From assembly GCA_016290215.1 (NCBI GenBank), contig JAEETH010000033.1, positions 1 to 36,372 of the forward strand: a stretch of 36,372 nucleotides of DNA. Reading direction: 5' to 3'. The position numbers and the translations under genes are program-made. Under the pieces are notes generated by a model, which did not search any database, had not been told where the DNA came from, and was given only the letters and a program-made list of their open reading frames with translations. This DNA comes from Bacteroidales bacterium (lineage in GTDB: Bacteria; Bacteroidota; Bacteroidia; Bacteroidales; F082). Below are positions 4,619 to 27,514 of the stretch, one piece after another; the stretch's first letter is position 1, and every line of letters starts with the position of its first letter.

Positions 4619-4620
4619 AT

Positions 4621-6303
4621 ATGAGAAGGGTGTTGCTGGGATTGGTTTTGTTGCTTGTGCTGACTGCAGGATGCGGCCGGCGACAGGGTGATGACGAAAA
4701 CCTCGCCATTTTTAAGTACAACGAATCCGCCGGCATCCTTACCCTCGACCCGATTTATGCCAAGGACTTGCCGCACATCTGGGCATGCAACCAAGTATTC
4801 AACAGCCTCGTGGCTTTCGACGACAAGATGAACCTGGTCCCGATGGTGGCCAAGTCATGGGACATCAGCGAGGATGGCTTGCGTTACACATTCCATTTGC
4901 GTGACGATGTGCAGTTTCATGAGGATACTTGTTTCTATGTTCAGTCGGCGTTTCGACAGGCTCAACGACCTTCACAAGCTAAGGTCCCTGAGCCCGTCGA
5001 AGGGCCGACCAATAAGTCTCGTTTTGTCACCGCTCAAGACTTCGTCTATTCCTTCAACCGCGTAGTCGACAAGAGTTTGAACTCACCAGGCTTGTGGATT
5101 TTCTCGTCTGTCAAGCATGATGAAGACCATTATGCCTTCACTGCCTTGGATGACACCACTTTCCAAATCGAGTTGTCAAAACCTTTCCCGCCGTTTTTAG
5201 GCATATTATCCATGACCTACGCCTCGGTGGTGCCGCATGAAGCTGTCGAGTATTATGGCGACAACTTCCGCAGCCATCCCGTGGGGACAGGTCCGTTCCA
5301 CTTCCAGTATTGGAAAGAAGGTGTGAAACTTGTCTTCCGCAAGAATCCCAACTACTTTGAGCGCGATGCGGCAGGGGAGAGGCTGCCCTATATCGATGCC
5401 GTTTCCATCAGCTTTCTCATCGACAAACAGGTGGCCTTCTTGGAGTTCATCAAGGGCAAGTTCGACTTCATGTCGGGCATCGACGCGCGCTATAAGGATG
5501 AATTGTTGACCTACGATGGTAACCTACGCAAGAAGTACGAGGACAAAATCGAGTTGATTACTGAGCCTTACTTGAACACCGAGTATTTCTCCTTTTTCAT
5601 CGACCCCAACGACCCGTTGGGTCCCGACCGTGCGCGTGCCTTGCGACAGGCCGTCAACCTCTGCATCGATCGAGAGAAAATGCTGCGTTATTTGCGCAAC
5701 GGTATCGGTGAGCCAGGCACTGGCGGCATGATTCCTGTGGGATTGCCAGGGCATAGCAGTACCATTGGCTATAGTTACGATTTGAAGCGCGCACAGCGTT
5801 TGGTGGCCGACAACCATCTGCAAGGCCATCTTTTGCAACTCACCACTGTGGCCGACTATGCCGACATCGGGAAGTTCGTGCAAAGCCAAGTGGAGCAAAT
5901 CGGGTTGCAATGTAAAATGGAGGTAATACCCCCTGCCACGTTGCGCAGCATGAGGTCAAACGGTAGTCTGCAGTTTTTCCGTTCCTCGTGGGTGGCAGAC
6001 TATCCTGATGCGGAGAACTATCTTTCCTTGTTCATTACCAGTAATTTCGCTCCATCGGGGCCCAATTACACCCATTATTCCAATCAAAAGTATGACAAAT
6101 TATACGACAAAGCCTTGCTTTGTAACGACTTACAAGAACGCGCCAAATATTACACCGAGATGGATAGTTTGATGATGCAGGATGCACCTGTAGTGGTGCT
6201 GTTCTACGATGAGGTGTTGCGTTTTGTGAACAAGCGTGTTAAGGACATGGGCAGCAATCCGACGAATTTGTTGGATTTGCGGAGAGTGAAGATGGGGGAA
6301 TAA
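4621..6303 (+). CDS. OppA-like (SBP family 5) solute-binding lipoprotein
   Basis: The 560-residue protein begins at ATG 4621; an in-frame GTG at 4615 is possible but less likely. Residues 1-18 form a lipoprotein signal with lipobox LTAGC, so it is probably anchored to a membrane facing the periplasm. The body matches family 5 extracellular solute-binding proteins of ABC importers for peptides or related oligomers: GILTLDPIYA, LVPMVAKSWDISEDGLRYTFHLRDDVQFH, FVYSFNRVVD, HPVGTGPFHF, ALRQAVNLCIDREKM. No permease or ATPase gene is nearby. Between FHEDTCF and RFVTAQDF lies an extra stretch of about 25 residues that coincides with a palindromic DNA repeat (4951-5007). It follows lon by 2 bases and is probably read from the lon promoter. 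Confidence 0.9.
   Translation: MRRVLLGLVLLLVLTAGCGRRQGDDENLAIFKYNESAGILTLDPIYAKDLPHIWACNQVFNSLVAFDDKMNLVPMVAKSWDISEDGLRYTFHLRDDVQFHEDTCFYVQSAFRQAQRPSQAKVPEPVEGPTNKSRFVTAQDFVYSFNRVVDKSLNSPGLWIFSSVKHDEDHYAFTALDDTTFQIELSKPFPPFLGILSMTYASVVPHEAVEYYGDNFRSHPVGTGPFHFQYWKEGVKLVFRKNPNYFERDAAGERLPYIDAVSISFLIDKQVAFLEFIKGKFDFMSGIDARYKDELLTYDGNLRKKYEDKIELITEPYLNTEYFSFFIDPNDPLGPDRARALRQAVNLCIDREKMLRYLRNGIGEPGTGGMIPVGLPGHSSTIGYSYDLKRAQRLVADNHLQGHLLQLTTVADYADIGKFVQSQVEQIGLQCKMEVIPPATLRSMRSNGSLQFFRSSWVADYPDAENYLSLFITSNFAPSGPNYTHYSNQKYDKLYDKALLCNDLQERAKYYTEMDSLMMQDAPVVVLFYDEVLRFVNKRVKDMGSNPTNLLDLRRVKMGE
4951..5007. repeat. In-frame palindromic repeat inside the lipoprotein gene
   Basis: Left arm from tttcgacaggctcaacgacc (4951-4970, continuing tt) and right arm 4981-5007 (aaggtccctgagcccgtcga and onward) form an imperfect inverted repeat around a short loop. 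It is translated as roughly FRQAQRP...KVPEPVEGP, in a spot where related proteins go straight on to the conserved TAQDFVYSF. A half-copy of the same sequence is inside the tricorn-like gene at 8070-8092. Confidence 0.8.
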
Positions 6304-11057: not shown

Positions 11058-11088
11058 AGAAAAAGCCCGTCAGATTACTCCAACGGAC
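11058..11088 (-). terminator. Intrinsic terminator after pepD
   Basis: On the minus strand gtccgttgg pairs with ctgacgggc (wobbles allowed) and is followed by a T-rich tract. It lies 26 bases after the pepD stop. Confidence 0.65.
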
Positions 11089-11113
11089 TCTTTCAAATTA
11101 GGTTATACCTCTC

Positions 11114-12688
11114 TTATTTCTTGGCTTTCTTAGTCGGTGCCTTTTTAGCAGGTGCCTTCTTGGCTGCTGGAGCTTTTTTCTCAGCCGTTGCTTTCTTGGC
11201 TGGAGCCTTCTTAGCCTTAGGTGCTTCGCCCTTCGGCACGTTCTTCAGGATGTCGCACATGAAGTCCCAGAACATCTGGACGGTGGCGATTTCGCAACGC
11301 TCGTCGGGTGAGTGCACACCGCGAAGGGTGGGACCGAAGCTGATCATGTCCATGCCCGGAATCTTATCGCCGATAAGGCCGCATTCCAAACCAGCGTGGA
11401 TAGCCCTGACTTTAGGATCCTTGTTGAAGCGTTTCTTGTAGCAGTTCACTGCGACGTCCAGGATGGCGCTGTTGGGGTTGGGTGCCCAGCCTGGGTAGCC
11501 GTCGGTGTGCTCCACGTCGGCATCGGCAAGGCTCCACACGGCTTCCACCATGTTGGCGATGTCTTGCTTCGACGACTCGATGGAGCTGCGCTGTGAGGTC
11601 TGGATGAAGAAATAGCCTTCCTTCTTCTTGCAGGAGGCGAGGTTGGTCGAGGTCTCCACGAAGTTCGGGATGGTTTGCGACATGGCGATGACGCCGTGCG
11701 GGCAGGCATAGAGGCCGTTCAGCAGGTTGTACTGGGCCATCTCGTCGATGACCACGTCGGGCTGCACCTCGGCGACTTCGGCCGTGACCTTCAGGCCGGG
11801 TTCGGTCACTTGGTACTCTTGCTTGAAGTGCTTCTCCATGTCGTTCACGTAGTGCAGGAAATGCTCGATGCTGTCGTTCGGCACGAAGGCCACTGCCGTG
11901 GCTTCGCGGGCGATGGCGTTGCGCAGGTTGCCGCCTTGGAAGTCGTAGAGTTGAAGGTCGAACCAGTTGGTGCCTTGCCACAGGATGCGGGTCAGCAGTT
12001 TGTTGGCGTTGGCCAGATTCTTGTTGATGTCGTCGCCGCTGTGGCCACCTTTCAGGCCGCTCACGGTGATGCGGTAGGCGGTGCAGTCCTCCGGAGCGGG
12101 CTCCAGTTCGTACCACACCTTCACGATGGTGTCCATGCCGCCGGCGCAGCCGATGAAGATCTCGCCTTCGTCCTCAGAGTCGAGGTTGAGGAGGATACGG
12201 CCGGTGAAGTCTTCCGGGTCGAGTTTCATGGCGCCCGTGAGGCCCGTCTCTTCGTCGACGGTGAAGATGCACTCGAGCGGACCATGTTCCACCTTCGGGT
12301 CGGCGATGACGGCCAGAGCCGCAGCCACGCCGATGCCGTCGTCAGCGCCGAGGGTCGTGCCGTTGGCATGCAGCCACTCGCCCTTGATGACAGGCTCGAT
12401 GGGGTCTTTCTCGAAGTCGTGCTTCTTGTCGCTGTTCTTCTCGCAAACCATGTCCATGTGGGCTTGCAGGATGACGGTCTGGCGGTCTTCCATACCCTTG
12501 GTGGCGGGCACGGTCATGATGATGTTGCCACAGTCTTCCTTGACGTAGCTGATGTTATGGTCTTTCGCCCATTGTTCGAGGTAAGCCACCATTTTGGTTT
12601 CTTTCTTCGATGGACGCGGCACACCGAGGATGCCGTTGAACTCTTTCCAAATGCCTTGCGGCTTTAATTTCAGGATGTCGTTACTCAT
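11114..12688 (-). CDS. pepD: Aminoacyl-histidine dipeptidase (M20C) with histone-H1-like tail
   Basis: The 524-residue protein is a cytosolic M20C metallopeptidase that cleaves Xaa-His and other dipeptides. Zinc ligands are visible: His77 and Asp79 (QAHMDM), Asp116 (GADDG), Glu146/Glu147 (DEET), Asp170, and a C-terminal His in RGVHSPDE. Spacing matches E. coli PepD up to about residue 485. The last 36 residues are an unusual Lys/Ala/Pro tail (AKKAPAKKA-type repeats), like bacterial histone-H1-like proteins and absent from ordinary PepD. The start at 12688 (MSNDILKLKPQGIWKEFN) fits the family. The tail may bind nucleic acid or polyphosphate; this is inference. Confidence 0.95.
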   Translation of the reverse strand: MSNDILKLKPQGIWKEFNGILGVPRPSKKETKMVAYLEQWAKDHNISYVKEDCGNIIMTVPATKGMEDRQTVILQAHMDMVCEKNSDKKHDFEKDPIEPVIKGEWLHANGTTLGADDGIGVAAALAVIADPKVEHGPLECIFTVDEETGLTGAMKLDPEDFTGRILLNLDSEDEGEIFIGCAGGMDTIVKVWYELEPAPEDCTAYRITVSGLKGGHSGDDINKNLANANKLLTRILWQGTNWFDLQLYDFQGGNLRNAIAREATAVAFVPNDSIEHFLHYVNDMEKHFKQEYQVTEPGLKVTAEVAEVQPDVVIDEMAQYNLLNGLYACPHGVIAMSQTIPNFVETSTNLASCKKKEGYFFIQTSQRSSIESSKQDIANMVEAVWSLADADVEHTDGYPGWAPNPNSAILDVAVNCYKKRFNKDPKVRAIHAGLECGLIGDKIPGMDMISFGPTLRGVHSPDERCEIATVQMFWDFMCDILKNVPKGEAPKAKKAPAKKATAEKKAPAAKKAPAKKAPTKKAKK

Positions 12689-15597: not shown

Positions 15598-15644
15598 ATT
15601 ATATGTGTATGTTTTTTTTGCATTCTAGAGTTCTTTTAGAAAAA

Positions 15645-15725
15645 GCCAACGACCCGTTGGCCAAATGAGCCACCAAGCTGGTGGCCAATTAGAATTTGAT
15701 GAAAAAGGTCAACAAGTCGTTGACC
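15645..15725. repeat. Array of three short palindromes (same family as the DUF1016 coding repeats)
   Basis: Palindromes gccaacgacccgttggc (15645-15661), gccaccaagctggtggc (15669-15685) and ggtcaacaagtcgttgacc (15707-15725), each followed by caa. The first two are 24 bases apart, the unit size of the DUF1016 repeats at 17931-18093. One forward frame here reads SHQAGGQLEFDEKGQQVVDQL, the same style of peptide as that protein's linker, so this may be a scar of a deleted DUF1016 gene. The rest of 15501-15840 holds the rhuM promoter, the inverted repeat and the next promoter. Confidence 0.75.
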
Positions 15726-15839: not shown

Positions 15840-16414
15840 ATGCCCAAATATAAAGTATTTATAAGCAGCGTACAATCAGAGTTTTCAAAAGAGCGACAGC
15901 TTGTTTTTGACTCGAAGTCATGTACCAGATGGGCTATATCGAGAAATACGGTACTGGTATCACAGAAAATATCCGCAGGATGCAAGAGGCCCGTCTCCTT
16001 GCTCCCGAGATAGACTTGAGTGCCGAGTTCGTCACCACAATCTGGCGCGATAATGATGCAACTAATATTGGAACTAATGATGCAACTAATGATGCAACCA
16101 ATAATGCAACTAATGATGCAACCAATGTTGCAACTTCCAAGGATTATTTAGCTGTCAATAAGCGTATTATAGACAGAAAAGTAAAAAAGAAAGTAAAAAA
16201 ACGAATGACAGAGCAACAATTACAGGAGTGCATTATTGAGGCATGTTATGTGGAACATTCTGTTGAGGAGTTGGCTAAACTGCTGGGAAAACCAGAGTCG
16301 CATATACGAAACCGATTCATCACCAATATGGTTGCAGACGGAATTCTTTTGCGAACTAAACCAGAACATTCTTCAGGTCAAACATACATGACAAATCCAA
16401 AACTTGATAAATAG
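15840..16414 (+). pseudogene. Internally deleted DUF4062/AlbA_2-type ATP-binding regulator
   Basis: ATG 15840 starts MPKYKVFISSVQSEFSKERQ, the typical N-terminus of DUF4062 proteins that continue into an AlbA_2 and GHKL-like ATP-binding region. After about 22 residues the match jumps, with a frame change near 15905, to what should be the far C-terminus: EVMYQMGYIEKYGTGITENIRRM, FVTTIWR, then seven Asn-Ala-Thr repeats and a winged-helix-like end. Intact relatives are several hundred residues long, so roughly a kilobase is missing. The N-terminal frame stops at 16013; the C-terminal frame could be read from 15920 (164 residues), and might still make a small protein. A promoter of the shared island type is intact upstream. 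Confidence 0.7.
16052..16135. repeat. Seven 12-base tandem repeats (aatgatgcaact)
   Basis: Seven units of consensus aatgatgcaact encode the Asn-Asp-Ala-Thr repeat in the pseudogene's C-terminal linker. Such ATN/ATD repeats are common before the winged helix in this family. Confidence 0.9.
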
Positions 16415-16486: not shown

Positions 16487-17563
16487 ATGCCCGCAAACAA
16501 AAACGCCGTAACACGCTACTACATCCTCGACAAGCTGTTGGCCAACCGCTATCACCATTATTCTACTGAGGATTTGGTAAGACTTGTCAATGAGGAGTTG
16601 GAAGAATTGAAACCAGAAAAGAAAAAGAGTTGGCAAGTAAGTCGTCGAACCATCGAACTTGACCTTCATTATTTGGAATATGAAAGTCCGTTTGTCGCTG
16701 ATATTGAGCATTATCAGGTTGATGATGTAAGCCAGCGGACCCTCAAAACCATCAAGAAAAGCTGTCATCGGTATGCCGACCCGTCTTTCTCCATATTTAC
16801 GCAGAAACTAACCGATGACGAAAAACACCTGCTTGGAGAGGCTTTCACGCTACTCGGGCAATTTGACGGACTGCCTACTCTTGTGGGCTTGGAAAGGCTG
16901 AGGGAAAGCCTCAAAGTGAAAACCGACCGTCAGATAGTGTCGTTCACAAAGAATCCTTTGGAAGGCAAGAACCTGCTGGGTGAATTGTTCACGGCAATCT
17001 CACAGAAACAGGTGGTGGAATTGCATTACCATCGGTTTGACACGCCCGATGAGGACCGCAAAACCGTTGTGCATCCTTACCTGCTAAAAGAATACAACCG
17101 CCGTTGGTATCTTATCGTTGCCGCCGACAATGATGGCAAAATACTGTCGTTTGCACTCGACCGTATCGATAAGTTTGTTCCGTTGCCTTCTCGTAGTTAT
17201 AAGGAATACGATGGCGACCTCAATGAGCGCTTTGAGGACATTATAGGGGTGACGCTCATCGACGGCAATCCGTTGCAGACCATCATGTTTTGGGTGAGTG
17301 ATTTTTCCAAGGATTATGTGGCCACCAAACCCTTGCATGAGTCTCAACGGCATTACAAAGGGGAAAGAGAAATGGAATTGCGCCAACAATACCCAAAGCT
17401 TGAAGGAGGTGCATTTTTCTCCATTGACTGCATAGAGAACTATGAGCTTATCCGCGAATTGTCCTCTTTTGGAAAAGACCTGTTGGTTCTCTCGCCCGCC
17501 GACATCCAGCAGAAGGTGCGCGACCGCGTGACGGCACAATTCCAGGCGTATCAGGCTTTGTAA
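16487..17563 (+). CDS. WYL domain transcriptional regulator (YafY-like)
   Basis: The 358-residue protein has an N-terminal winged-helix region (residues 8-75: YYILDKLLANRYHHYSTEDLVRLVNEEL...QVSRRTIELDLHYLE) and a WYL domain from about 160 (KQVVELHYHRF...KTVVHPYLLKEYNRRWYLIVAADNDGKILSFALDRID), ending with a WCX-like dimerisation part. WYL regulators bind ligands, often nucleic acid or nucleotide-like, and are frequent controllers of phage-defence operons. The start follows promoter B by 20 bases. The gene is monocistronic, 43 bases before the nuclease gene. Because its promoter shares the motif with three other island genes, it is the best local candidate for their regulator; this is inference. 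Confidence 0.9.
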   Translation: MPANKNAVTRYYILDKLLANRYHHYSTEDLVRLVNEELEELKPEKKKSWQVSRRTIELDLHYLEYESPFVADIEHYQVDDVSQRTLKTIKKSCHRYADPSFSIFTQKLTDDEKHLLGEAFTLLGQFDGLPTLVGLERLRESLKVKTDRQIVSFTKNPLEGKNLLGELFTAISQKQVVELHYHRFDTPDEDRKTVVHPYLLKEYNRRWYLIVAADNDGKILSFALDRIDKFVPLPSRSYKEYDGDLNERFEDIIGVTLIDGNPLQTIMFWVSDFSKDYVATKPLHESQRHYKGEREMELRQQYPKLEGGAFFSIDCIENYELIRELSSFGKDLLVLSPADIQQKVRDRVTAQFQAYQAL

Positions 17564-17606: not shown

Positions 17607-18815
17607 ATGAGCGACAAACCGACATTCGTATCCCGTGACATGATGACTGCCGATGAGGGCTATGTGCAATGGATGGCCGACATCAAGCAGCGATTCCGCC
17701 AAAGCCAAGTCAAGGCGGCGGTTCGAGTGAACACTGCCATGCTTGAGTTTTATTGGAGTTTGGGAAGAGACATGGTGGAACTGCGGGCAGAAAGCAAATG
17801 GGGCAGCGGTTTCTTCGATCAGTTGAGCCTTGATTTGAGGACTGCTTTTCCCGAAGAAACGGGTTTCTCAGTGACCAACCTCAAGTATATGAAGCGTTGG
17901 TATACCTTTTATAATGAGAGAGTTGCAAATCGTCAACGAGTCGTTGACGAAATTCGTCACCAAGCTGGTGACGAAATTAGTGCTGTTCAAAGTGATGAAC
18001 CAAATGTTGTAATTCGTTACCAAGCTGGTGACGAATTGGGTGCTGTAATTCGTCAGCAACCTGCTGACGAAAAAGGTCACCAAGCTGGTGACCAATTGGA
18101 AATGCCTGAAATATTTGGTCTAGTTCCTTGGAAACATCATGTCCTTATTATTTCCAAATGCCAAACCCTTGACGAGGCCATTTTCTATATCAATAAGGTG
18201 ACTGAGGAAGGCTGGAGCCGTAGCAGGCTCGAAAGCCAGATAGCGGCCAACCTCTTTGGCAGCCAAGGGGCAGCCGTGACCAACTTTGAGCATACGCTTC
18301 CGGCTCCGCAAAGCCAATTGGCCAAGGAGATACTAAAGGATCCCTATCATTTCGGTTTCCTCTCGATGAGCGAGGAGTACGAGGAGAAAGACTTGGAGGA
18401 TGCGCTGGTTTCGAATGTCACGCGCTTCTTGATGGAGTTGGGCAAGGGCTTTTCGTATGTGGGGCGACAGATGGAGTTGCAGATGCCTGGCGGACAGACC
18501 TTCTTCCCCGATTTGTTGTTCTATCACATCCCACAGCACCGCTATGTCGTCATTGAGCTGAAGGTGGTGAAGTACATCCCCGAGTTTGCCGGCAAGCTGA
18601 ATTTCTACGTTACTGCCGTTGATGAGTTGCTGCGTGGCGAGGGCGACAACCCCACCGTGGGACTGATCATCTGCAAATCGACCGACAAGACCGTTGTGGA
18701 ATGGTCGTTGCGAGACATCAACAAGCCGCTGGGCGTGTCCTCCTACCAGCTTGAACAGGTGGTGGAGCGCACGGTGAGGGAGCTGGAACTGAAGAAAGAA
18801 AATTCGCGAAAATAG
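17607..18815 (+). CDS. PDDEXK nuclease domain protein (YhcG/DUF1016) with palindrome-encoded linker
   Basis: The 402-residue protein has a DUF1016 N-terminal domain (about 20-105: VNTAMLEFYWSLGRDMVELRAESKWGSGF..., TGFSVTNLKYMKRWYTFY) and a C-terminal PDDEXK nuclease domain with Asp302 (FFPDLLFYH) and Glu317-x-Lys319 (VVIELKV), so the catalytic triad looks intact. Members are thought to cleave DNA or act in restriction-like or toxin-like roles; the exact substrate is not known. The linker at about 106-165 is made of repeats such as RHQAGDEI, RYQAGDEL, RQQPADEK and GHQAGDQL, each encoded by a DNA palindrome. It has its own promoter. Confidence 0.9.
   Translation: MSDKPTFVSRDMMTADEGYVQWMADIKQRFRQSQVKAAVRVNTAMLEFYWSLGRDMVELRAESKWGSGFFDQLSLDLRTAFPEETGFSVTNLKYMKRWYTFYNERVANRQRVVDEIRHQAGDEISAVQSDEPNVVIRYQAGDELGAVIRQQPADEKGHQAGDQLEMPEIFGLVPWKHHVLIISKCQTLDEAIFYINKVTEEGWSRSRLESQIAANLFGSQGAAVTNFEHTLPAPQSQLAKEILKDPYHFGFLSMSEEYEEKDLEDALVSNVTRFLMELGKGFSYVGRQMELQMPGGQTFFPDLLFYHIPQHRYVVIELKVVKYIPEFAGKLNFYVTAVDELLRGEGDNPTVGLIICKSTDKTVVEWSLRDINKPLGVSSYQLEQVVERTVRELELKKENSRK
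17931..18093. repeat. Five short palindromes inside the DUF1016 linker
   Basis: Palindromes at 17931-17949, 17955-17973, 18015-18033, 18051-18069 and 18075-18093, of the type cgtcaccaagctggtgacg, plus a weaker one at 17985-18000 (gttcaaagtgatgaac). Start-to-start distances are 24, 60, 36 and 24 bases, all multiples of 12, so the reading frame is kept. The same palindrome family forms the intergenic array 15645-15725. Confidence 0.9.
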
Positions 18816-18868: not shown

Positions 18869-21319
18869 ATGCAACACACACAAAACGACCTCACAGTAGA
18901 GAATCTTGTCAACAAATACCGCAACTATGTTAGCAATTATATTAAGGTGCATGGTATAGGGATGGTTGTTCCGGTTCAAGATGATGAAGGTAATTGGGAT
19001 GAAATCATCGCGCCTTGTTCTCCAGATGAAAATGCTGATGAGCAATTGCTCATAGTACTCTATAAAACCGTTGCTGGGGAAAGTGCAGATAATCGGATTA
19101 TTGAGGCACTTTTGGAATATGCTGAGAAATACCAAGAGGCATGCTTCTCCGAGGATGAATTTGTTTTCCTATGTGAGAATTTTTCCGAAGTGGTTTTCTA
19201 TGAATTTGCCCATAGGAATGAGTGGCTAAATGGAGAACATGCTAAGCATATTACGGATGGTATTTCTGAAAAACGCATTAGGCTTGTAAAAGAGCATGTG
19301 AAACCACAAAGAGGAGCAAGAGTTTTTATCGCAGATACTGAATACTGTGATCTTGCAGTTCTTTTTCCAGATTGTATCATATCTGGATTTACAGGTATGA
19401 ACTATAATCAAAAGATAGTATGGGCATTGGGACAAATCCGTCTATTCGCCGCAGGCATTCAGTCTGAGATTGTTTCAGGTGAGGAAGTAAATGACGAATA
19501 TTCATATACGTTGCCTGCAAAGGGGTCAGTAGACGTGGTTATTTTCCGAGTCAATGAGCAAAAATACGCTGCTCAAGAATTATTCGGAACAGAATGCAAG
19601 GATATAGAAGCGTTGTATGACCTTCTAAAGCCAAACGGGAAAATGCTGTTTTTCTCTGAGTTTATATCAGAAATGGCTGGAATGAAAGCTGAATTGTTTG
19701 AGGCTCCCATCATCGATTTTCGCGTTCGTAGAACTAGAGAAAAAGCTATTTCTACTATTGTTGCATACGAGGATAAGGGCTTTTTTGGCGACAAGTATAT
19801 TATGCTTGCATTATGCAAGGCTGAAAATGACAAAGTCCGCATCATAGACGAAGTGAAGTCAAGGACTAAATATATCAATGCAGATGGACTAGATCCTGAG
19901 ATTTTGTGGCCTAGTTACTATTGGACGAATCGACCGACTGATGGTATTCCATTATCTTCTATTGTAAAACACCAACGGGTAAGACTCTTAGAGGAAAAAG
20001 AGCTTGCAGAATTTGTTAAAGGAGAAGGATGGGCCCTTCACGAAAAGGCAAAGAACATGCCGTTAGTTCTGCCGGACATGCTTAGAGACAGTTACAAAGA
20101 TGCAAATCTTTGGAATAGAATTGTCAACAGTGTTAGTGACCCTGGTATTGAAGAAGAACAGGCAAAGCTGTGTGTGGCAAAAAAGCCATGCGTTCTTCTG
20201 AGTAGTAGCACTGAGGACTTTAGAGTTGGGTATGTAACAGAAGCACCTGATGGAGGCTTCGCTTACATGAAAGCTTGTTGCATGGTTCCGCAGGACGGGA
20301 TTGATGTTCGCTACATTGCAGCTTTATTGTTTGAGCCGTCTGTCAAAGAACAAATTTTGACTATTTGTGAAGGGCACACCATCAACCTTGCCTTGCCGTT
20401 GGTTATGGACAAAATCATCGTACCTAATCATGATGAAAAAGAGCGTTTAGCTTTTTTGGCTGAAGCCAATTACGATGCCTTATTGTTTTCACAAGAAGAA
20501 CTTAAACAGGAAGCTGAGTATTATAAGAAATCCGTTCGTATGCGCAAGCATGCGCTTACTCAGTCGTTATCCTCTATAGAAGCCATGTTTTATGCCTTGA
20601 ATGAATTTCGTATTCGTCAAAAGGGAAAATTGGTAAATGAGGATGTGATTTCAAGAGTAAAAGGAACTACGGTTCGTGAGGCTTTCGAATTTATTTCAAA
20701 GAATTTGGAGGACATGATGCCTGCTTTGGAGCATATTGCAGCAGTGGATTACTCTTTTAACAAGCCAGAATGGATTGATCCTGAGATATTCATAGAGGAT
20801 TATATTAAGAGAAACGAAAACGGTTGGCTTAACTTCAAGCCAATTATGATGTGGGAGAAAGGCCATAATCAGGCAACTGAAGATATCAGGGAACCGTTTT
20901 CTGGAGAAATCGTTTTGTCGAAGGGAAACTCAATTTATCAGTTCCTATTTCCCAAAGATGCATTAGAACGTGTGTTCAAAAATATCATCTCCAATGCCCA
21001 AGCACATGGCTTTGATAAAAAAACACGTATTGACTATCAACTAAGATTTTCTTGGCATATGGATGGCATAGCTTTGATTGTAGAAATAGACAATAACGGT
21101 TCTCCGATCCCCAATGATAGAGATACTGCATCTTTATTAGAATACGGGGTTTCTACTGCACTTCATCATGATGGCCATAATGGAATTGGGTGCAATGAGA
21201 TAGTTGACATCATGCAAAGATATGATGGGAAGGTTCAAATTGTTTCCTCTCCAGAAAACGAGTTTTCAGTAAAATATATTCTAACATTCAATCGTTCTAA
21301 CACTATTGGAACATTATAA
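18869..21319 (+). CDS. Methylase-like/HsdS-like protein fused to a histidine-kinase ATPase domain
   Basis: The 816-residue protein starts at ATG 18869; an upstream TTG at 18830 lies inside the promoter. Residues about 150-340 resemble an N6-adenine DNA methylase fold (VDVVIFRVNEQ..., ALYDLLKPNGKMLFFSEF), but the SAM loop and the NPPY motif are not recognisable, so it is probably catalytically dead. Residues about 440-545 resemble an HsdS-like specificity region (YIAALLFEPSVKEQI...LALPLVMDKIIVPNHDEKERLAFL). A helical segment with candidate phosphoacceptor His561 (RMRKHALTQSLSSIEAM) follows, then a GHKL ATPase: N box Asn709 (NIISNAQAHGF), G1 Asp741-x-x-Gly744 (DNNGSP), G2 Gly772-x-Gly774 (GHNGIGCNEI). 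No signal or membrane segment: cytoplasmic. A receiver gene begins 9 bases after the stop. The DNA is AT-rich compared with the flanks. The domain calls rest on motif reading only. Confidence 0.7.
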   Translation: MQHTQNDLTVENLVNKYRNYVSNYIKVHGIGMVVPVQDDEGNWDEIIAPCSPDENADEQLLIVLYKTVAGESADNRIIEALLEYAEKYQEACFSEDEFVFLCENFSEVVFYEFAHRNEWLNGEHAKHITDGISEKRIRLVKEHVKPQRGARVFIADTEYCDLAVLFPDCIISGFTGMNYNQKIVWALGQIRLFAAGIQSEIVSGEEVNDEYSYTLPAKGSVDVVIFRVNEQKYAAQELFGTECKDIEALYDLLKPNGKMLFFSEFISEMAGMKAELFEAPIIDFRVRRTREKAISTIVAYEDKGFFGDKYIMLALCKAENDKVRIIDEVKSRTKYINADGLDPEILWPSYYWTNRPTDGIPLSSIVKHQRVRLLEEKELAEFVKGEGWALHEKAKNMPLVLPDMLRDSYKDANLWNRIVNSVSDPGIEEEQAKLCVAKKPCVLLSSSTEDFRVGYVTEAPDGGFAYMKACCMVPQDGIDVRYIAALLFEPSVKEQILTICEGHTINLALPLVMDKIIVPNHDEKERLAFLAEANYDALLFSQEELKQEAEYYKKSVRMRKHALTQSLSSIEAMFYALNEFRIRQKGKLVNEDVISRVKGTTVREAFEFISKNLEDMMPALEHIAAVDYSFNKPEWIDPEIFIEDYIKRNENGWLNFKPIMMWEKGHNQATEDIREPFSGEIVLSKGNSIYQFLFPKDALERVFKNIISNAQAHGFDKKTRIDYQLRFSWHMDGIALIVEIDNNGSPIPNDRDTASLLEYGVSTALHHDGHNGIGCNEIVDIMQRYDGKVQIVSSPENEFSVKYILTFNRSNTIGTL

Positions 21320-21328
21320 CCATAATGT

Positions 21329-22612
21329 ATGGAAGCATACGATTTAGATTTAATACAAGTTTTATGGGTTGAAGATGACCCGAAAGTTATACAATCATAT
21401 CCAATAGAGGCTGAATCTAAGGGGTTGCAATTAGAACAGTTTTCATGTTGGGATGATGCTAAAGTTGCGCTCGAAGATGATTACGATAGATGGTCGGCGA
21501 TCATCTTAGATGCAAAATGTAAACATCATCGCGACAGCGCAGATAACGCAGTAAAATTTCTTGGAGCAGCATTAAAAGATATAGCGGTGATAAGTAAGGA
21601 AAAGCGGAGGGTGATTCCCTGGTATGTTCTTACAGGTGGTGCGGAGTCCGAAGTCTCTGATGCAATTATGGAAGATCGTGAGGAATGGGATTCTGATTGG
21701 ACTGTTATTAAAAATCGGAATTTTTACACAAAGAGCGAAGACCGAATGGACTTGTATGATAGGATTCTTGAGCACGCAAAAAAATCACCTCGTCTCCAAG
21801 TAAAGGATATGTATCGTGATAGTTATAAGGCATTATATGTGCTAAATAAAGAGGCAAGTGAGATAATCATAGATATTTTTGAAGCTATGCATTATCCTAG
21901 TGATCATCCAGATTTCAATCCAGTCTTATATTATAACCAACTACGCCAGATTCTTGAATGGAATTTTAGAAATGCCAATAAGTATGCGATTATCCCAGAT
22001 GTATTAGTTAATAACATTGTTAATCTGAATCAGTGTTGCTGCTACTTAAGTGGTAAACCAACGCTAGCAATCAAACCACACCTAAGGTATGGAGAAGATG
22101 ACCGTGATCGAATTGTCCCTCCATATATTGAAAACATACTATTCTTGATATTGAATCTTGGTAATACCAACTCCCACACTACAGCACTTGATGAAAAGGG
22201 AAAAGAAAAACTGGAATCCTTTTTTGCAAGTAATGTAAGCAATTCTCGATACCTTATTTTTAGTCTAGCTCTACAAGTTTGTGAAGTAACGTTATGGCTA
22301 TGTAATTATATTGAAAAACATCAGAATATTGAAGAGAACAAGGGGAAGTGTAAAATTTTGGATGATACAGAGCAAGAAAAACAAACCGAAGAAGATGGGT
22401 ATTACGAAGGTAGAATAATAGAGGTAGAAAATCAACATGGATCCTTTTTGAATGTAGAATGTGATTTATTCCAGTTTTCCCTCCAAATCAAATCGAGAAA
22501 AGGTAAACTAAAAAAGGAAGATGAGGTATTGTTTAAAGTGGTTCAAGAACCAAACAAGAAAGATCCTAGCAAACAGTTTTTGTTCGCAGTTGATGTGCAT
22601 CTAAAAGAATGA
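21329..22612 (+). CDS. Response regulator with helical (HEPN-like?) middle and cold-shock-like C-terminus
   Basis: The 427-residue protein opens with a receiver domain: acidic pair Asp16/Asp17 (VLWVEDDP), phosphoacceptor Asp61 (SAIILDAKC), Thr102 (VLTGG) and Lys135 (FYTKS), all in the usual places. Residues about 155-335 are all-helical with a conserved-looking GNTNSHTT (278-285) that recalls the N-x-x-x-H turns of HEPN-type helical domains; this is tentative. After an acidic linker, residues 357-427 (YYEGRIIEVENQHGSFLNVECD...KLKKEDEVLFKVVQ...QFLFAVDV) look like a cold-shock/S1-like OB fold, implying nucleic-acid binding. There is no known DNA-binding HTH. It follows the kinase-like gene by 9 bases, so the two form an operon and a likely signalling pair. 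Confidence 0.7.
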   Translation: MEAYDLDLIQVLWVEDDPKVIQSYPIEAESKGLQLEQFSCWDDAKVALEDDYDRWSAIILDAKCKHHRDSADNAVKFLGAALKDIAVISKEKRRVIPWYVLTGGAESEVSDAIMEDREEWDSDWTVIKNRNFYTKSEDRMDLYDRILEHAKKSPRLQVKDMYRDSYKALYVLNKEASEIIIDIFEAMHYPSDHPDFNPVLYYNQLRQILEWNFRNANKYAIIPDVLVNNIVNLNQCCCYLSGKPTLAIKPHLRYGEDDRDRIVPPYIENILFLILNLGNTNSHTTALDEKGKEKLESFFASNVSNSRYLIFSLALQVCEVTLWLCNYIEKHQNIEENKGKCKILDDTEQEKQTEEDGYYEGRIIEVENQHGSFLNVECDLFQFSLQIKSRKGKLKKEDEVLFKVVQEPNKKDPSKQFLFAVDVHLKE

Positions 22613-22717
22613 GTTTTTATGTCAGGGTGTTCGTTTGGTTCGTATGTATAAAAGAAAAAGGGTTTGTGCTATTTGTATAGATCCTTTGCTTTTGGTCGAA
22701 CAAGCTGATTGTTTATA

Positions 22718-22737
22718 GGTCAAAATGCAGGTTGAAA
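22718..22737 (+). repeat. Possible left terminal inverted repeat
   Basis: ggtcaaaatgcaggttgaaa is about 80% identical to the reverse complement of 25247-25266 (ggtcaaattgcaggctgcaa). The two bracket the Sll1717-type ATPase and two transposase remnants. Confidence 0.45.
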
Positions 22738-22951
22738 AAACGAGTCGTAGTCCAATGTGTCATTTTGCAGGCTGAAAATTTGTGGCTTGATGTCAGGCGT
22801 TTGTTCCATGTCGCTATCTTTGCCGCGCGGACGAAGCATAGCGGGGCTTTGCTTGGGAACAACCCCGTGAGGAAATAGGCTGAGCGACATGACAACTCGC
22901 TGATACATACAATACATACATACGCACAAACCATAAAAAATGATCTAAAAG

Positions 22952-22983
22952 TTTGTCAAATAGAACAGAAACACATACTTTTG
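22952..22983 (+). promoter_or_regulatory. Promoter of the Sll1717-type ATPase gene
   Basis: TTTG at 22952-22955 and tacttttg at 22976-22983, spacer 20. The leader to ATG 23096 is about 110 bases. The gcgaaaat island motif is absent. Confidence 0.7.
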
Positions 22984-23095
22984 CACCCGGTTGAAAGGAC
23001 TGCCCAAACGGGACTTCGGCTTCCTGACAACTCTAAACTGAGAAAATCAAGTATAATTAGAAGTCCCCATGTCTTAAACTACAAATTTTTCAAAG

Positions 23096-24565
23096 ATGAA
23101 CTCCAATAACAATTTTGTTTTCACTGATGAAAATATCCAAAAACTATTTGGATATGAAGATGCAGAAAGTGAATCCATTGAAAGACTTAAAGAGTATTAC
23201 CTTAAAAAGGATACATATAAAAAAGTCGTTGCAGAACTTCCAATACGGATTCTTGTTGGTCATAAAGGCACAGGAAAATCTGCTCTTTTTAAAGTTGCCT
23301 TTTATGAAGAAAAAGAAAAGCTGAATCTTCCAATTTTAATAAAACCAGATGATATAGCAGAACTTGGTAAAGGAAACGAGAATTTTCTTCTTAGAGTTAG
23401 ACAATGGAAATATGGTTTGACAAAGATTATAGGAGAAAAGGTATTCTCTGAGCTATCTATAAATGATGCCGTAGCTAAGAACAAGTTAACACAATTTGGA
23501 ATTAAGATAGTAAACTTTGTCTACGAAACTGTTAATTATGCCAAGGACAATGTTGATATGACTGAACCGCAAAGAATTGCTATTGACAATTTTTTACGGA
23601 CGAGAAAAATAATAGTATATATTGATGATTTAGACAGAGGTTGGGAAGGGAAAAAAGATGATATAAATAGGATTTCTGCATTGTTGAATGCAATTAGAGA
23701 TATGGCTAATGAAAATCCAGGGTTGTTTTTTAAAATATCTTTAAGATCCGATGTGTATTATCTTGTGAGAACGTCTGATGAGTCAACGGACAAAATAGAA
23801 GGTTCAGTGGTATGGTTTAAGTGGACAAATCATGAGATTTTTGTGCTATTGGTAAAGCGGATATTAACATGTTTTGGCGAAAGTTTCAATGAAGACAATC
23901 TACTAAAAACAGACCAATTCCAACTAAGGTATTATTTAGATAAAATTATGGTCCAAAGATTTGAAGGGAGAGGGAAATGGGATAATGTATATACTTATAA
24001 GATATTGATGTCGTTAATAAGAAAAAGGCCAAGAGATTTAGTGAAGCTTTGTACTTTGGCAGCACATCAAGCTCAAGATAGTAATTCAAATATTATTAAG
24101 ACAGAACATTTTATGGCTGTTTTCGAAGAGTATTCTCAAGGAAGGATTCAAGACACAATTAACGAATATCGGTCAGAATTACCAAAAATACAAGAATTAT
24201 TGTTCGGTATGCGGCCAAATAGGAAAGTTAAATATGCGGTTGATGGATTTGTTTATACCACGAGCGAGTTGATGCAAAAACTGAATAATTTGAAACAAAA
24301 CACAAATTTTGTTTTTAAAAATGGGAGAGATGCATCAGCAAAGGAGCTCGCTCACTTTTTGTACAAAATTAATTTTATTACTGCAAGAAAGCAACTTGAA
24401 AGTGGTGAAATTCAAAGAAAATACTTTGAGGAAAACAGATATTTATCATCTACCTTTGTAGATTTTGGTTATGATTGGGAAGTGCATCCTGCTTTTAGAT
24501 GGGCACTTCAACCAGACAACATAGACGATATATTCCATAAATTAAAACTAAGTCATGATGATTAA
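23096..24565 (+). CDS. P-loop ATPase, Sll1717-type
   Basis: The 489-residue protein starts MNSNNNFVFTDENIQKLFGYEDAE, typical of the Sll1717 family of P-loop ATPases. Walker A is GHKGTGKS at 55-62; Walker B is IIVYIDDLDRGWEG with Asp177/Asp178. A helical segment (about 240-340: LLVKRILTCFGE..., KILMSLIRKRPRDLVKLCTLAAHQA) and a C-terminal winged-helix-like part follow, as in KAP/STAND-like NTPases. These genes are common in defence-rich regions, but no reaction beyond ATP hydrolysis is known. It is AT-rich, has its own promoter, and lies between sequences that look like broken insertion elements, which suggests transfer as a passenger gene. Confidence 0.8.
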   Translation: MNSNNNFVFTDENIQKLFGYEDAESESIERLKEYYLKKDTYKKVVAELPIRILVGHKGTGKSALFKVAFYEEKEKLNLPILIKPDDIAELGKGNENFLLRVRQWKYGLTKIIGEKVFSELSINDAVAKNKLTQFGIKIVNFVYETVNYAKDNVDMTEPQRIAIDNFLRTRKIIVYIDDLDRGWEGKKDDINRISALLNAIRDMANENPGLFFKISLRSDVYYLVRTSDESTDKIEGSVVWFKWTNHEIFVLLVKRILTCFGESFNEDNLLKTDQFQLRYYLDKIMVQRFEGRGKWDNVYTYKILMSLIRKRPRDLVKLCTLAAHQAQDSNSNIIKTEHFMAVFEEYSQGRIQDTINEYRSELPKIQELLFGMRPNRKVKYAVDGFVYTTSELMQKLNNLKQNTNFVFKNGRDASAKELAHFLYKINFITARKQLESGEIQRKYFEENRYLSSTFVDFGYDWEVHPAFRWALQPDNIDDIFHKLKLSHDD

Positions 24566-25450: not shown

Positions 25451-27514
25451 ATGAAGATTGCAGAAGTAGTTATGGACGAGCCCAACCTTGAGCAGCAAAA
25501 GGCTTTTGACCTTGTGGCAAACACCAACACCAGTTTGTTCATCACTGGAAAGGCAGGTACGGGCAAAACCACCTTCGTTAAGGGTATTCAGGAGCAAATC
25601 AAAAAGAGCTTTTTGGTGCTGGCTCCAACTGGCATTGCCGCCATGAATGTCGGGGGACAAACCATCCACTCGTTTTTCGGCCTTCCTTTTGAGGCAATAG
25701 GACCGGAAACAAAGATGGAAGTTTCTTTGGAGAAGCGCAAGACCCTTGAACATATCGATACCATCATTATCGATGAAGCCTCTATGGTGCGTTGTGATTG
25801 GGTGGACGGCATCGACCGATTCCTCCGCGCTTTGATGCACACCCATCTTCCTTTTGGCGGTAAGCAAGTGGTGTTTGTCGGCGATCTTTTCCAGTTGCCC
25901 CCAGTGGTGAGACGCGGAAGTGCCGACGATATGATGTTGTGTTATATGTACGGCAACGGTACTCCATATTTTTACAAGGCAAACGTGATGAAGCGGATGA
26001 ATCTGCCCAAGATAGAGTTCCAAAAGGTGTACCGTCAAGAGGATTCGGAGTTTTTGGACATTCTGGATAGGATGCGCTTGGGGGAGAACACGGAAAAAGA
26101 CATGGATGTCCTTAACCGTCATGTGAGCTCCGATGATAAAGTGGGCGATTACTCAGTTATTCTGACTGCCCGTGTGAATACCGCAGACGGCATCAATGAT
26201 CAGAAACTGAATGAAATCGAGTCGGAGGAGTTTTGCTATGAGGGCGAGATTTCGGGCAAGTTCAAGTCTCAGGATGTTCCAGTCCCGATAACGCTGAGGC
26301 TTAAGGTTGGCGCTCAGGTCATTTTCTGCCGCAACGACTATCCGCGTGGCGTTGTGAACGGCACTATTGCCAAAGTTGTGGCTTTGGAGGACGATACAAT
26401 CAAGGTCGCCTTGAAGGATGGAGAGGAAATCGAGGTGGAAAAGATGACATGGGAGACTAAGGAAAGCGTTTATGATGAAACGACCAAGACAGTGAAATCC
26501 GAAGTCGTAGGATCCTTCACCCAATACCCGCTGAAATTGGCTTGGGCCATCACTATACACAAATCCCAAGGCATGTCTTTTGACCGGATGCACTTCGACC
26601 TTACTCGTGGCACTTTTGCTGCAGGTCAGGCATACGTGGCCATCAGTCGTATGCGCTCTTTGGATGGATTAACGTTGAGCAGAAAGATTTTCAAAAACGA
26701 CATTTTACAGAATGCGGAAATCAAGGCTTTTGCCAACTCATTCAACGATGTGGCAATGATTGACGACGAGTTGTCGTTTGGTGAAGAATACTATAAGCAT
26801 CTCGCCAAAAAGGACTATGACAATGCGGCTAAGATGTGCCTGCTTCACTCGATGGAAAAGATGAAGTCGGGCGACTATCGCAGTGCTGCACTCTTGGCAA
26901 AGAAGATGTTTGACGTGATGCTCGATGACAAATGTCTGATAGGGCAGACAAAAGAAGTCCCGCTGTTGAAGGATTGCAGCATGACGTGTAATTTCCTTAA
27001 CGCTGTTATTTGTTTGTATAGCGACCGTTTCGAGGAAGCCATCGGCTATGCCGACATGGTGCTTGACCGCAGGCCTTGCCTTGAAGCCATGTTTGTCAAG
27101 GGGAAAGCCTTGTTGGCATTAGGTTGCTATGATGAGGCATTGGAAATGGCACAACTGATTCGCATAGCCAGCAAAGAGTCGGTTGACAAAGTTGCCATCG
27201 ATAAAAAACAATACCTGTTTGAGGCGGAACTCAACGCAGAGCTTGGAAATCCGAACATCGACACTTGCAAGCAGTTGCTGAAATTGTGTCCCGAGTACAT
27301 TCCAGCATATATCATGTTGCGGAGAGAGGTGAAAAAGGAAGAAATTGTCATAGAACAGGACGAAGAAGATGAAGAAAATCCGTTGATCTTAGTTTTCAAT
27401 GACACGACTGTTTCTGACGATGATTTCAAGGAGATGCTGGAAGAATCGGATATGACAAGCCCGACATTTAAGCAGTTTGCTATAAAGGCAAAAAATATTT
27501 CGGTTGAGTGTTAA
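25451..27514 (+). CDS. Pif1/RecD-like superfamily 1B DNA helicase with C-terminal TPR-like region
   Basis: The 687-residue protein has SF1 helicase motifs in order: Walker A GKAGTGKT at 33-40, VLAPTGIAAMNVGGQTIHSFF (motif Ia), Walker B IIIDEASM at 106-112, FVGDLFQLPPVV (motif III), and IHKSQGMSFD with AYVAISRMRSL near the end of the core (motifs V/VI). This is the Pif1-like subfamily, 5'-3' DNA helicases. The last 230 residues are helical with repeating patterns (YKHLAKKDYDNAAKMC..., FEEAIGYADMVLDRRPCLEAMFVKGKALLALGCYDEAL), like tetratricopeptide repeats, perhaps for partner binding. It has promoter D. The next small gene begins 52 bases after its stop with no obvious promoter, so read-through is possible. 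Confidence 0.92.
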   Translation: MKIAEVVMDEPNLEQQKAFDLVANTNTSLFITGKAGTGKTTFVKGIQEQIKKSFLVLAPTGIAAMNVGGQTIHSFFGLPFEAIGPETKMEVSLEKRKTLEHIDTIIIDEASMVRCDWVDGIDRFLRALMHTHLPFGGKQVVFVGDLFQLPPVVRRGSADDMMLCYMYGNGTPYFYKANVMKRMNLPKIEFQKVYRQEDSEFLDILDRMRLGENTEKDMDVLNRHVSSDDKVGDYSVILTARVNTADGINDQKLNEIESEEFCYEGEISGKFKSQDVPVPITLRLKVGAQVIFCRNDYPRGVVNGTIAKVVALEDDTIKVALKDGEEIEVEKMTWETKESVYDETTKTVKSEVVGSFTQYPLKLAWAITIHKSQGMSFDRMHFDLTRGTFAAGQAYVAISRMRSLDGLTLSRKIFKNDILQNAEIKAFANSFNDVAMIDDELSFGEEYYKHLAKKDYDNAAKMCLLHSMEKMKSGDYRSAALLAKKMFDVMLDDKCLIGQTKEVPLLKDCSMTCNFLNAVICLYSDRFEEAIGYADMVLDRRPCLEAMFVKGKALLALGCYDEALEMAQLIRIASKESVDKVAIDKKQYLFEAELNAELGNPNIDTCKQLLKLCPEYIPAYIMLRREVKKEEIVIEQDEEDEENPLILVFNDTTVSDDDFKEMLEESDMTSPTFKQFAIKAKNISVEC

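What the first reader, a model, noticed from the sequence alone, without database searches (positions are those of the whole stretch)
18869..22612. Candidate new signalling or defence pair: methylase-like histidine kinase plus receiver with RNA-type output
Seen: an 816-residue protein joining a methylase-like/HsdS-like region to a GHKL ATPase (N709, D741, G744, G772, G774) with candidate His561, followed after 9 bases by a receiver (D16, D17, D61, T102, K135) that has no HTH but a helical domain and a cold-shock-like end. Known: phosphorelay-type anti-phage systems exist (for example Detocs). Inference: the first protein senses foreign or modified DNA through a retired methylase/specificity module and signals by phosphotransfer to an effector acting on RNA.
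Basis: partly seen in the sequence, partly recalled or inferred. Interest (0 to 1): 0.85.

Follow-up and report, generated by a model that had tools for sequence, protein, structure and literature searches.

The report
Dead-methylase histidine kinase with receiver
Two neighbouring bacterial genes form a phosphate-relay pair whose sensor appears to be built from worn-out parts of a DNA-restriction enzyme; many relatives sit inside restriction or CRISPR gene clusters, so it is probably an alarm wired into bacterial immunity.

Summary
The pair is real and conserved. The first protein (18869-21319) is a histidine kinase whose sensor half derives from type I HsdM and HsdS; the second (21329-22612) is a receiver plus a helical domain weakly like DUF4145 (HEPN).

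Of 28 other genomes with a receiver match, 24 carry the kinase beside it; 2 end at a contig edge, 2 match only over the receiver part. Gaps are -35 to +15 bp (27 of 27). H561 is kept in 26 of 26 kinases; D61 and K135 in 27 of 27 receivers.

HsdM follows the receiver in 14 of 28 pair loci; others lie with McrBC or type III CRISPR genes. A WYL gene lies upstream in 18 of 25 assessable loci, the window included; the window itself has no hsd neighbours. Motif IV is intact in 8 of 8 partner HsdMs, in 1 of 18 kinases. One relative's receiver ends in a Schlafen AlbA_2 domain instead.

Best reading: an immune phosphorelay attached to restriction systems, perhaps a PrrC-like second line. The cold-shock-like end is only marginally supported.

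The parts
16487..17563 (+). WYL-domain regulator (358 aa), conserved upstream neighbour of the pair
   Evidence: Pfam WYL 2.8e-13 and WCX 1.4e-5; a WYL gene upstream in 18 of 25 assessable pair loci
17607..18815 (+). DUF1016/YhcG-type PDDEXK protein (402 aa) between WYL and kinase; same place in L001
   Evidence: Pfam YhcG_C 2.5e-53, DUF1016_N 8.1e-34; PADLOC PDC-S02; a DUF1016-like gene lies between HsdM and HsdS in L114 (phmmer 1e-25)
18869..21319 (+). Histidine kinase with degenerate HsdM/HsdS-derived N-terminal half (816 aa), no transmembrane-like stretch
19166..19918 (+). Degenerate N6-methylase (HsdM-like) region, about residues 100-350; motifs I and IV not recognisable
   Evidence: Family profile matches EcoR124II M protein 7bst_D E 1.2e-31; motif table; inferred through relatives, not detectable in the window protein alone
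19946..20548 (+). HsdS-like target-recognition and coiled-coil region, about residues 360-560
   Evidence: hhalign vs partner HsdS 32.3 against best of 60 shuffles 20.1; Specificity_I models match up to 16 of 20 kinases, not the window's
20549..20551 (+). Codon of H561, presumed phosphorylated histidine
   Evidence: Invariant 26 of 26; aligns with HisKA His
20957..21271 (+). HATPase_c (GHKL) domain, residues 697-801
21329..22612 (+). Receiver protein (427 aa), partner of the kinase
21350..21784 (+). Receiver (REC) domain, residues 8-152; D61 codon at 21509-21511
   Evidence: hhalign probability 96; D61 and K135 27 of 27
21794..22354 (+). Helical domain, residues 156-342, distant DUF4145/HEPN-like (R206, E210, H283 conserved; HEPN Arg of Rx4-6H missing)
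   Evidence: hhalign 28.0 vs best of 200 shuffles 16.2, probability 28
22391..22609 (+). Variable C-terminal tail, residues 355-427; absent from the shorter receivers
   Evidence: cold-shock test marginal

Best explanation
It is an immune phosphorelay derived from, and often attached to, restriction systems. The kinase carries a catalytically dead HsdM plus one HsdS-like half; as a dimer it would have two M-like and two recognition halves, the layout of a type I methyltransferase clamp (inferred). During infection something occupies or deforms this dead clamp: a phage anti-restriction DNA mimic, or phage DNA itself (inferred). H561 is then phosphorylated and passes the phosphate to D61 of the receiver (strongly supported by sequence, not assayed). 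Phosphorylation switches on, or releases, the receiver's output domain (HEPN/DUF4145-like here, Schlafen AlbA_2 in a relative), which acts on RNA and stops growth or translation as a second line behind restriction, as PrrC does beside PrrI (inferred). The WYL protein keeps the locus quiet (inferred from family).
For: Kinase and receiver hallmarks conserved in 26 of 26 and 27 of 27. Adjacent pair in 24 of 28 other genomes with a receiver match. HsdM follows the receiver in 14 of 28 pair loci; two more (L035, L119) have Hsd-like genes nearby. McrB-like and McrC genes follow in L042; type III CRISPR genes surround L041; receiver relatives stand beside Cas6 and RT-Cas1 in L016 and L118. Dead methylase: NPP[FY] in 8 of 8 partner HsdMs; 1 of 18 kinases keeps NPP[YFW], and its motif I is gone by eye. 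Output swap to SLFN_AlbA_2, E 6.4e-15. Patchy distribution, 7 of 393, 14 of 395 and 13 of 395 genomes. Present on three Myroides plasmid records and in a record with a conjugative coupling protein. Kinase constant while the partner HsdS differs, one case. No transmembrane-like segment, best 19-residue mean 1.2.
Against: The window copy has no hsd genes beside it; HsdM- and HsdR-like genes lie on other contigs. 10 of 28 pair loci show no Hsd, McrBC or Cas gene in the models run. No base rate of HsdM adjacency for random genes was computed. The HEPN catalytic Arg is absent; PMC3710099 (passages) suggests that HEPN domains lacking the motif bind RNA. HEPN likeness is weak (probability 28). The methylase part is not detectable in the window protein alone. 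No phage, toxicity or phosphotransfer data were made or found. The constant-kinase result rests on one pair of genomes. L041's kinase has no visible methylase part.
Confidence: 0.45

Rival explanations
1. Controller of restriction: the kinase senses DNA modification state or restriction activity, and the receiver (RNA-binding rather than cleaving) adjusts expression or activity of the neighbouring restriction genes, so that restriction starts only after the host DNA is protected.
For: Operon position before HsdM; output domain lacks the HEPN Arg and could bind RNA; two-component pairs usually regulate genes (general knowledge).
Against: No DNA-binding domain found in the window receiver; a WYL regulator is already present; pairs without a restriction gene in view exist (window, L001, L012); output swap to AlbA_2; kinase constant while HsdS differs (one case).
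Confidence: 0.25
2. Stand-alone sensor of foreign DNA: the HsdS-like part binds a DNA sequence or modification on incoming DNA and triggers the relay, independent of any restriction partner.
For: HsdS-like recognition region present and among the fastest-diverging stretches between window and L001: four 50-column blocks at 32-44% identity against 70-92% in the last six blocks; pairs without restriction genes in view exist.
Against: DNA binding untested; methylase motifs gone, so modification reading would need another basis; half of the pair loci have HsdM after the receiver.
Confidence: 0.2
3. Ordinary two-component system with a housekeeping role.
For: HATPase and receiver are common.
Against: Patchy distribution; restriction/CRISPR linkage; GC 0.35-0.40 from 19501 to 24000 against 0.47-0.56 over the first 13.5 kb.
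Confidence: 0.04

Closest known systems
PrrC-PrrI (HEPN anticodon nuclease inside a type Ic R-M gene cluster; PMC3710099, section 10 read in full)
   Same: An extra RNA-directed module beside hsd genes as a second line of defence; HEPN-type output
   Different: Here signalling is by a histidine kinase and receiver, with no ABC ATPase; the HEPN-like domain lacks the catalytic Arg; a pseudo-HsdM/HsdS is the presumed sensor
Detocs (recalled; no Detocs paper was read)
   Same: Kinase and receiver proteins used in anti-phage signalling
   Different: Sensor here is HsdM/HsdS-derived; no PNP-type effector (recalled feature) is next to the pair in the window
McrBC of the NxD branch with 'DNA methyltransferases' and two-component genes in the operon (PMC11090510, passages read)
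   Same: L042 (kinase, REC-AlbA_2, McrB-like, McrC) may belong to this remark; its McrB motif was not checked
   Different: The passages seen mention the association briefly and defer it; they do not describe a dead methylase-kinase or its type I R-M setting
Type I R-M methyltransferase (HsdM2-HsdS)
   Same: Ancestry of the kinase's N-terminal half
   Different: Catalytic motifs lost, kinase fused behind
CoCoNuT CnuA receiver proteins (PMC11090510, passages read)
   Same: REC domain in a restriction operon
   Different: Coiled-coil and pyrin-like protein; no pseudo-methylase kinase in the passages seen
MADS components mad2 and mad5 (PADLOC models)
   Same: Models match 10 of 20 kinases each, through the methylase and specificity parts (my reading)
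   Different: Not matched by the window kinase; the rest of MADS was not looked for

Membership tests
Two-component system (HisKA-type kinase plus receiver) | Phospho-acceptor His in an H-box, N box, G1/G2 boxes | tested here: met
   H561, N709, N742, G744, G772, G774 invariant in 26 of 26. hhalign to one own-genome kinase (one of four loci fetched): window clade 43.3 vs best of 60 shuffles 22.3; DHp alone 22.0 vs best of 100 shuffles 12.6; whole family 78.7, not shuffled. G1 has Asn where Asp is usual (recalled).
Two-component system (HisKA-type kinase plus receiver) | Receiver with acid pair, Asp, T/S and Lys | tested here: met
Two-component system (HisKA-type kinase plus receiver) | Phosphotransfer His to Asp | not testable with these tools
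   needs a biochemical assay
Type I R-M methylase subunit (HsdM) | Homology to HsdM | tested here: met
   Met for the family: profile of eight kinases to HsdM structures, best E 1.2e-31; MTase_I model matches 13 of 20 kinases. Window protein alone: not detectable.
Type I R-M methylase subunit (HsdM) | Intact motif I and NPP[FY] motif IV | tested here: not met
   NPP[YFW] in 1 of 18 kinases against NPP[FY] in 8 of 8 partner HsdMs; motif I judged by eye (my strict pattern found it in only 5 of 8 partners)
HEPN RNase | HEPN/DUF4145-like fold | tested here: inconclusive
   hhalign 28.0 vs best of 200 shuffles 16.2, probability 28; Pfam DUF4145 in 1 of 23 receivers at E 0.11; control PF05168 HEPN set 14.8
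HEPN RNase | Rx4-6H catalytic motif | tested here: not met
   H283 aligned in 27 of 27 (one of them, L042, has a different output domain); no conserved Arg in the columns before it (column 275)
Cold-shock domain | CSD profile match at the C-terminus | tested here: inconclusive
   CSD profile of three sequences
Detocs | Detocs proteins recognised by defence models | tested here: inconclusive
   No PADLOC-DB (2023) family for either window protein at E 0.1; whether that release holds Detocs models was not checked
Detocs | Third protein: receiver-PNP effector (recalled) | tested here: not met
   The genes next to the pair in the window are DUF1016 and an Sll1717-type ATPase

The most novel reading that the evidence does not exclude
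A dead restriction enzyme turned into a signalling receptor: a kinase dimer that mimics the M2S DNA clamp, is triggered when a phage anti-restriction DNA mimic (or DNA) fills it, and passes phosphate to interchangeable RNA-acting effectors. It would be a phosphorelay guard of restriction systems, a decoy in the plant-immunity sense.
Probability: 0.35. Interest if true: 0.88.

Novelty: new variant of a known kind. Interest (0 to 1): 0.72.

Why it matters
A kinase without transmembrane-like segments, built on a dead HsdM/HsdS module and placed inside type I R-M operons and beside McrBC and type III CRISPR genes, would link two-component signalling to restriction directly, and would make a testable case of a decoy receptor in bacteria. 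It also corrects annotation: on a Myroides plasmid the kinase relative is filed as a plain 'N-6 DNA methylase' with a 'hypothetical protein' after it.

Tried and rejected
Viral-contig scans with five single proteins found no relative. Plasmid tblastn with the two window proteins found nothing; the more distant L014 kinase found three Myroides plasmids with matches over 96% of its length, and 2014 other records, of which those listed are type I M subunits or N-6 methylases.

Rejected: active methylase. Not counted as family members: the two weakest phylum hits. L044 looks like a PhoB-type regulator (by eye; Trans_reg_C matches 1 of 23 receivers) and matches over profile positions 7-59 only. L043 matches over 2-158 only; its neighbour shows His and GHKL-like boxes in the alignment but the kinase profile did not match it. 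Both, and L042, were left out of the receiver profiles. L041 and L043 were left out of the leave-out kinase profile and of the motif count (18 of the 20 kinases); the later kinases of L103 and L112-L119 were not in the motif count. In building comparison sets I used 7 of 9 own-genome receivers, 10 of 12 DUF4145 loci, 11 HEPN proteins, 3 of 4 cold-shock loci and 1 of 4 HisKA loci, the rest lost to my search patterns or picked wrongly. L002 is a chance peptide match in another protein.

PF05168 HEPN as the relative of the middle domain was not supported (14.8). PpoS/PpoR of Marinomonas (PMC8523701, abstract and passages) is a BarA/UvrY-like system. In PMC12839542, PMC7641849, PMC12255303 (passages) and PMC13092281 (abstract, passages and section 8) I saw no description of this pair; a figure legend of PMC13092281 names HATPase and REC domains among predicted systems, and the figure is not held, so it may show something similar. 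Ten paper searches were made; most subscription papers are missing from that library, so absence from print is not shown.
Full report
What is there. The window holds two co-directional genes 9 bases apart: 18869-21319 (816 aa from the ATG) and 21329-22612 (427 aa). Upstream on the same strand lie a WYL regulator (16487-17563) and a DUF1016/YhcG PDDEXK protein (17607-18815); downstream come an Sll1717-type P-loop ATPase (23096-24565) and a PIF1-like helicase with a TPR signal (25451-27514). GC is 0.35-0.40 from 19501 to 24000, against 0.47-0.56 over the first 13.5 kb and 0.42-0.53 after 25.5 kb.

Kinase. HATPase_c matches at 697-801, E 1.8e-5, just below the Pfam cut-off. Among the eight kinases of alignment A1 the same domain matches 8, N6_Mtase 5, Methylase_S 3 and HARE-HTH 2. 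PADLOC's Specificity_I models match up to 16 of 20 kinases, MTase_I up to 13, and MADS mad2 and mad5 10 each; no model matches the window kinase. A profile of the eight kinases finds HsdM structures (EcoR124II M, E 1.2e-31), more weakly HsdS structures (about 4e-6 for the whole sequence, no stretch passing on its own) and histidine kinases (SrrB 2.4e-5). The DHp/CA part aligns with one HisKA kinase of the same genome over 209 columns, with H561 on the phospho-His. The family scores 78.7; the window's clade scores 43.3 against a best of 60 shuffles of 22.3; DHp alone scores 22.0 against a best of 100 shuffles of 12.6. H561, N709, N742, G744, G772 and G774 are invariant in 26 of 26 (the truncated L103 and the broken L115 are not in this count). 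There is no transmembrane-like stretch in the window kinase.

Dead methylase. All 8 partner HsdM proteins examined keep NPP[FY]. Among 18 kinases (of the 20; L041 and L043 have no visible methylase part) only L038 keeps NPP[YFW], and its motif I is gone by eye; in the window neither motif is recognisable. My strict motif I pattern found it in only 5 of 8 partners, so motif I is the softer argument. In window plus L001 alone the HsdM relation is not detectable (18.7 against a shuffle maximum of 28.3), so it rests on the intermediate relatives. The HsdS relation is direct (32.3 against 20.1).

Receiver. Pfam finds nothing in the window protein, but the family receiver profile (20 sequences) matches seven own-genome receivers at probability 96, E 1.9e-9; against the HEPN and DUF4145 sets it gives 0.1. 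D61, T/S102 and K135 are kept in 27 of 27, H283 is aligned in 27 of 27, R206 in 26 and E210 in 24. The middle domain scores 28.0 against a ten-sequence DUF4145 profile (best of 200 shuffles 16.2; probability 28), with R206/E210 and H283 near the corresponding conserved columns. PMC3710099 (passages) places DUF4145 in the HEPN superfamily, names an Ex3[KR] motif, lists families that keep His but lack Arg, and suggests that some domains lacking the motif bind RNA. Here position 214, four after E210, is K or R in 18 of 27, and the Arg before His is missing; the domain is HEPN-like at most and its catalysis is doubtful. The tail of the receiver is variable and absent in short members; the cold-shock reading is marginal.

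Conservation as a pair. Receiver matches: 7 of 393 genomes of the order (single protein, E up to 1e-4), 14 of 395 of the phylum (profile, 1e-4) and 13 of 395 of the class (profile, 1e-8); the own genome is in each and three others recur. Of the 28 distinct other genomes, 24 have the kinase next to the receiver (in L115 in broken pieces), 2 (L016, L118) end at the contig edge, and 2 (L043, L044) match only over the receiver part and are not counted as members. With the window, L001, L010 and L031 this makes 28 pair loci. The intergenic distance is -35 to +15 in 27 of 27 (L115 left out).

Neighbourhood. HsdM follows the receiver in 14 of 28 (L010, L031-L034, L036, L038, L039, L112-L117; in L115 as a fragment at the contig end about 0.6 kb away). 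HsdS is in view in 13 of these 14 and an HsdR hit in 7, within the stretches held. The annotated Myroides plasmid shows it fully: WYL, 'N-6 DNA methylase' (the kinase), 'hypothetical protein' (the receiver), methyltransferase, subunit S, hypothetical, phospholipase D-like, subunit R, with the receiver overlapping the methyltransferase gene by 8 bases. L035 has an HsdR upstream and L119 has Hsd-like genes on both sides. L042 continues with an AAA_5 (McrB-like) and a McrC gene, and its receiver carries SLFN_AlbA_2, E 6.4e-15. In L041 the pair lies among RAMP, Csx1-CARF-like (below cut-off) and Cas6 genes. L016 and L118 have the receiver beside Cas6 and RT-Cas1. L040 has a NACHT protein upstream. 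A WYL gene is upstream, on either strand, in 18 of 25 loci where the upstream side is held (L014, L042 and L103 begin at contig ends; L033's more distant WYL is not counted). The nine class-level loci were fetched after the pattern had been seen and act as a fresh sample: 6 of 9 have HsdM after the receiver and 8 of 9 have restriction or Cas genes in view; the ninth is a 3.1-kb contig. No base rate for random genes was computed. The window and L001 lack hsd neighbours but keep WYL and DUF1016; in L114 a DUF1016-like gene sits between HsdM and HsdS.

Does the kinase read its partner's site? In two genomes of one genus (L112, L113) the HsdS proteins are 37% identical, with high identity only in a few blocks, while kinase, receiver and HsdM are 97, 98.5 and 94% identical. 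The kinase sensor therefore need not change with the partner's specificity. One pair only.

Mechanism. Shown by sequence: kinase and receiver hallmarks, degenerate methylase motifs, tight pairing, restriction/CRISPR linkage, one swapped output. Inferred: phosphotransfer, clamp-like dimer, trigger, RNA-directed output, growth arrest. The closest precedent is PrrC, which PMC3710099 (section 10, read in full) describes as held inactive by the R-M system PrrI and released by a phage anti-restriction peptide, or when dTTP or unmodified DNA rises. I favour a phosphorelay version of that plan, with restriction control and direct DNA sensing as rivals.

Known or new. Neither window protein has a PADLOC-DB 2023 match at E 0.1. 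In the listings and passages I saw from ten searches of the open paper library this pair did not appear. PMC11090510 (passages) does note that many NxD-type McrB GTPases are associated with DNA methyltransferases and frequently have two-component genes in the same operon, and defers them to a later paper; the McrBC-linked branch may thus have been noticed. I rate it a new variant of a known kind.

Noticed in passing
L112 and L113 (HsdS genes at 3672-4988 and 11058-12362): Same-genus loci with nearly identical kinase, receiver and HsdM but HsdS only 37% identical: a specificity exchange around a constant kinase.
   Followed up: partly
L010 (MT835483.1), 2866-5043: The record is named 'Bacteriophage sp.' but carries a type IV secretion coupling protein (T4SS-DNA_transf 1e-15), so it may be a conjugative element rather than a phage.
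   Followed up: partly
L016 and L118: Receiver-family proteins directly beside Cas6 and RT-Cas1 genes; the contigs end where a kinase would lie.
   Followed up: partly
L042:2438-3382: Receiver fused to a Schlafen AlbA_2 domain, followed by McrB-like and McrC genes.
   Followed up: partly
L013:11864-12508 and L014:4028-4408: DUF7255 proteins beside the pair in two distant loci; possible nuclease by eye, not tested.
   Followed up: no
window 15920-16414: Short ORF with a weak HATPase_c_4 match at its start and a repeated NDAT stretch; looks like the truncated end of a larger regulator gene.
   Followed up: no
window 25451-27514 and L001:6029-8167: A PIF1-like helicase with TPR signal lies after the pair in both closest loci (65% identical), perhaps part of the same island.
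   Followed up: no
L115:1762-3997: Kinase gene broken into several frames beside a WYL gene and a partial HsdM; a decaying copy or assembly errors.
   Followed up: no
window 15644-15725 and 18075-18093, minus strand: Three short similar hairpins (two of GGTCA..TGACC type) with T-rich tails near the island start.
   Followed up: no
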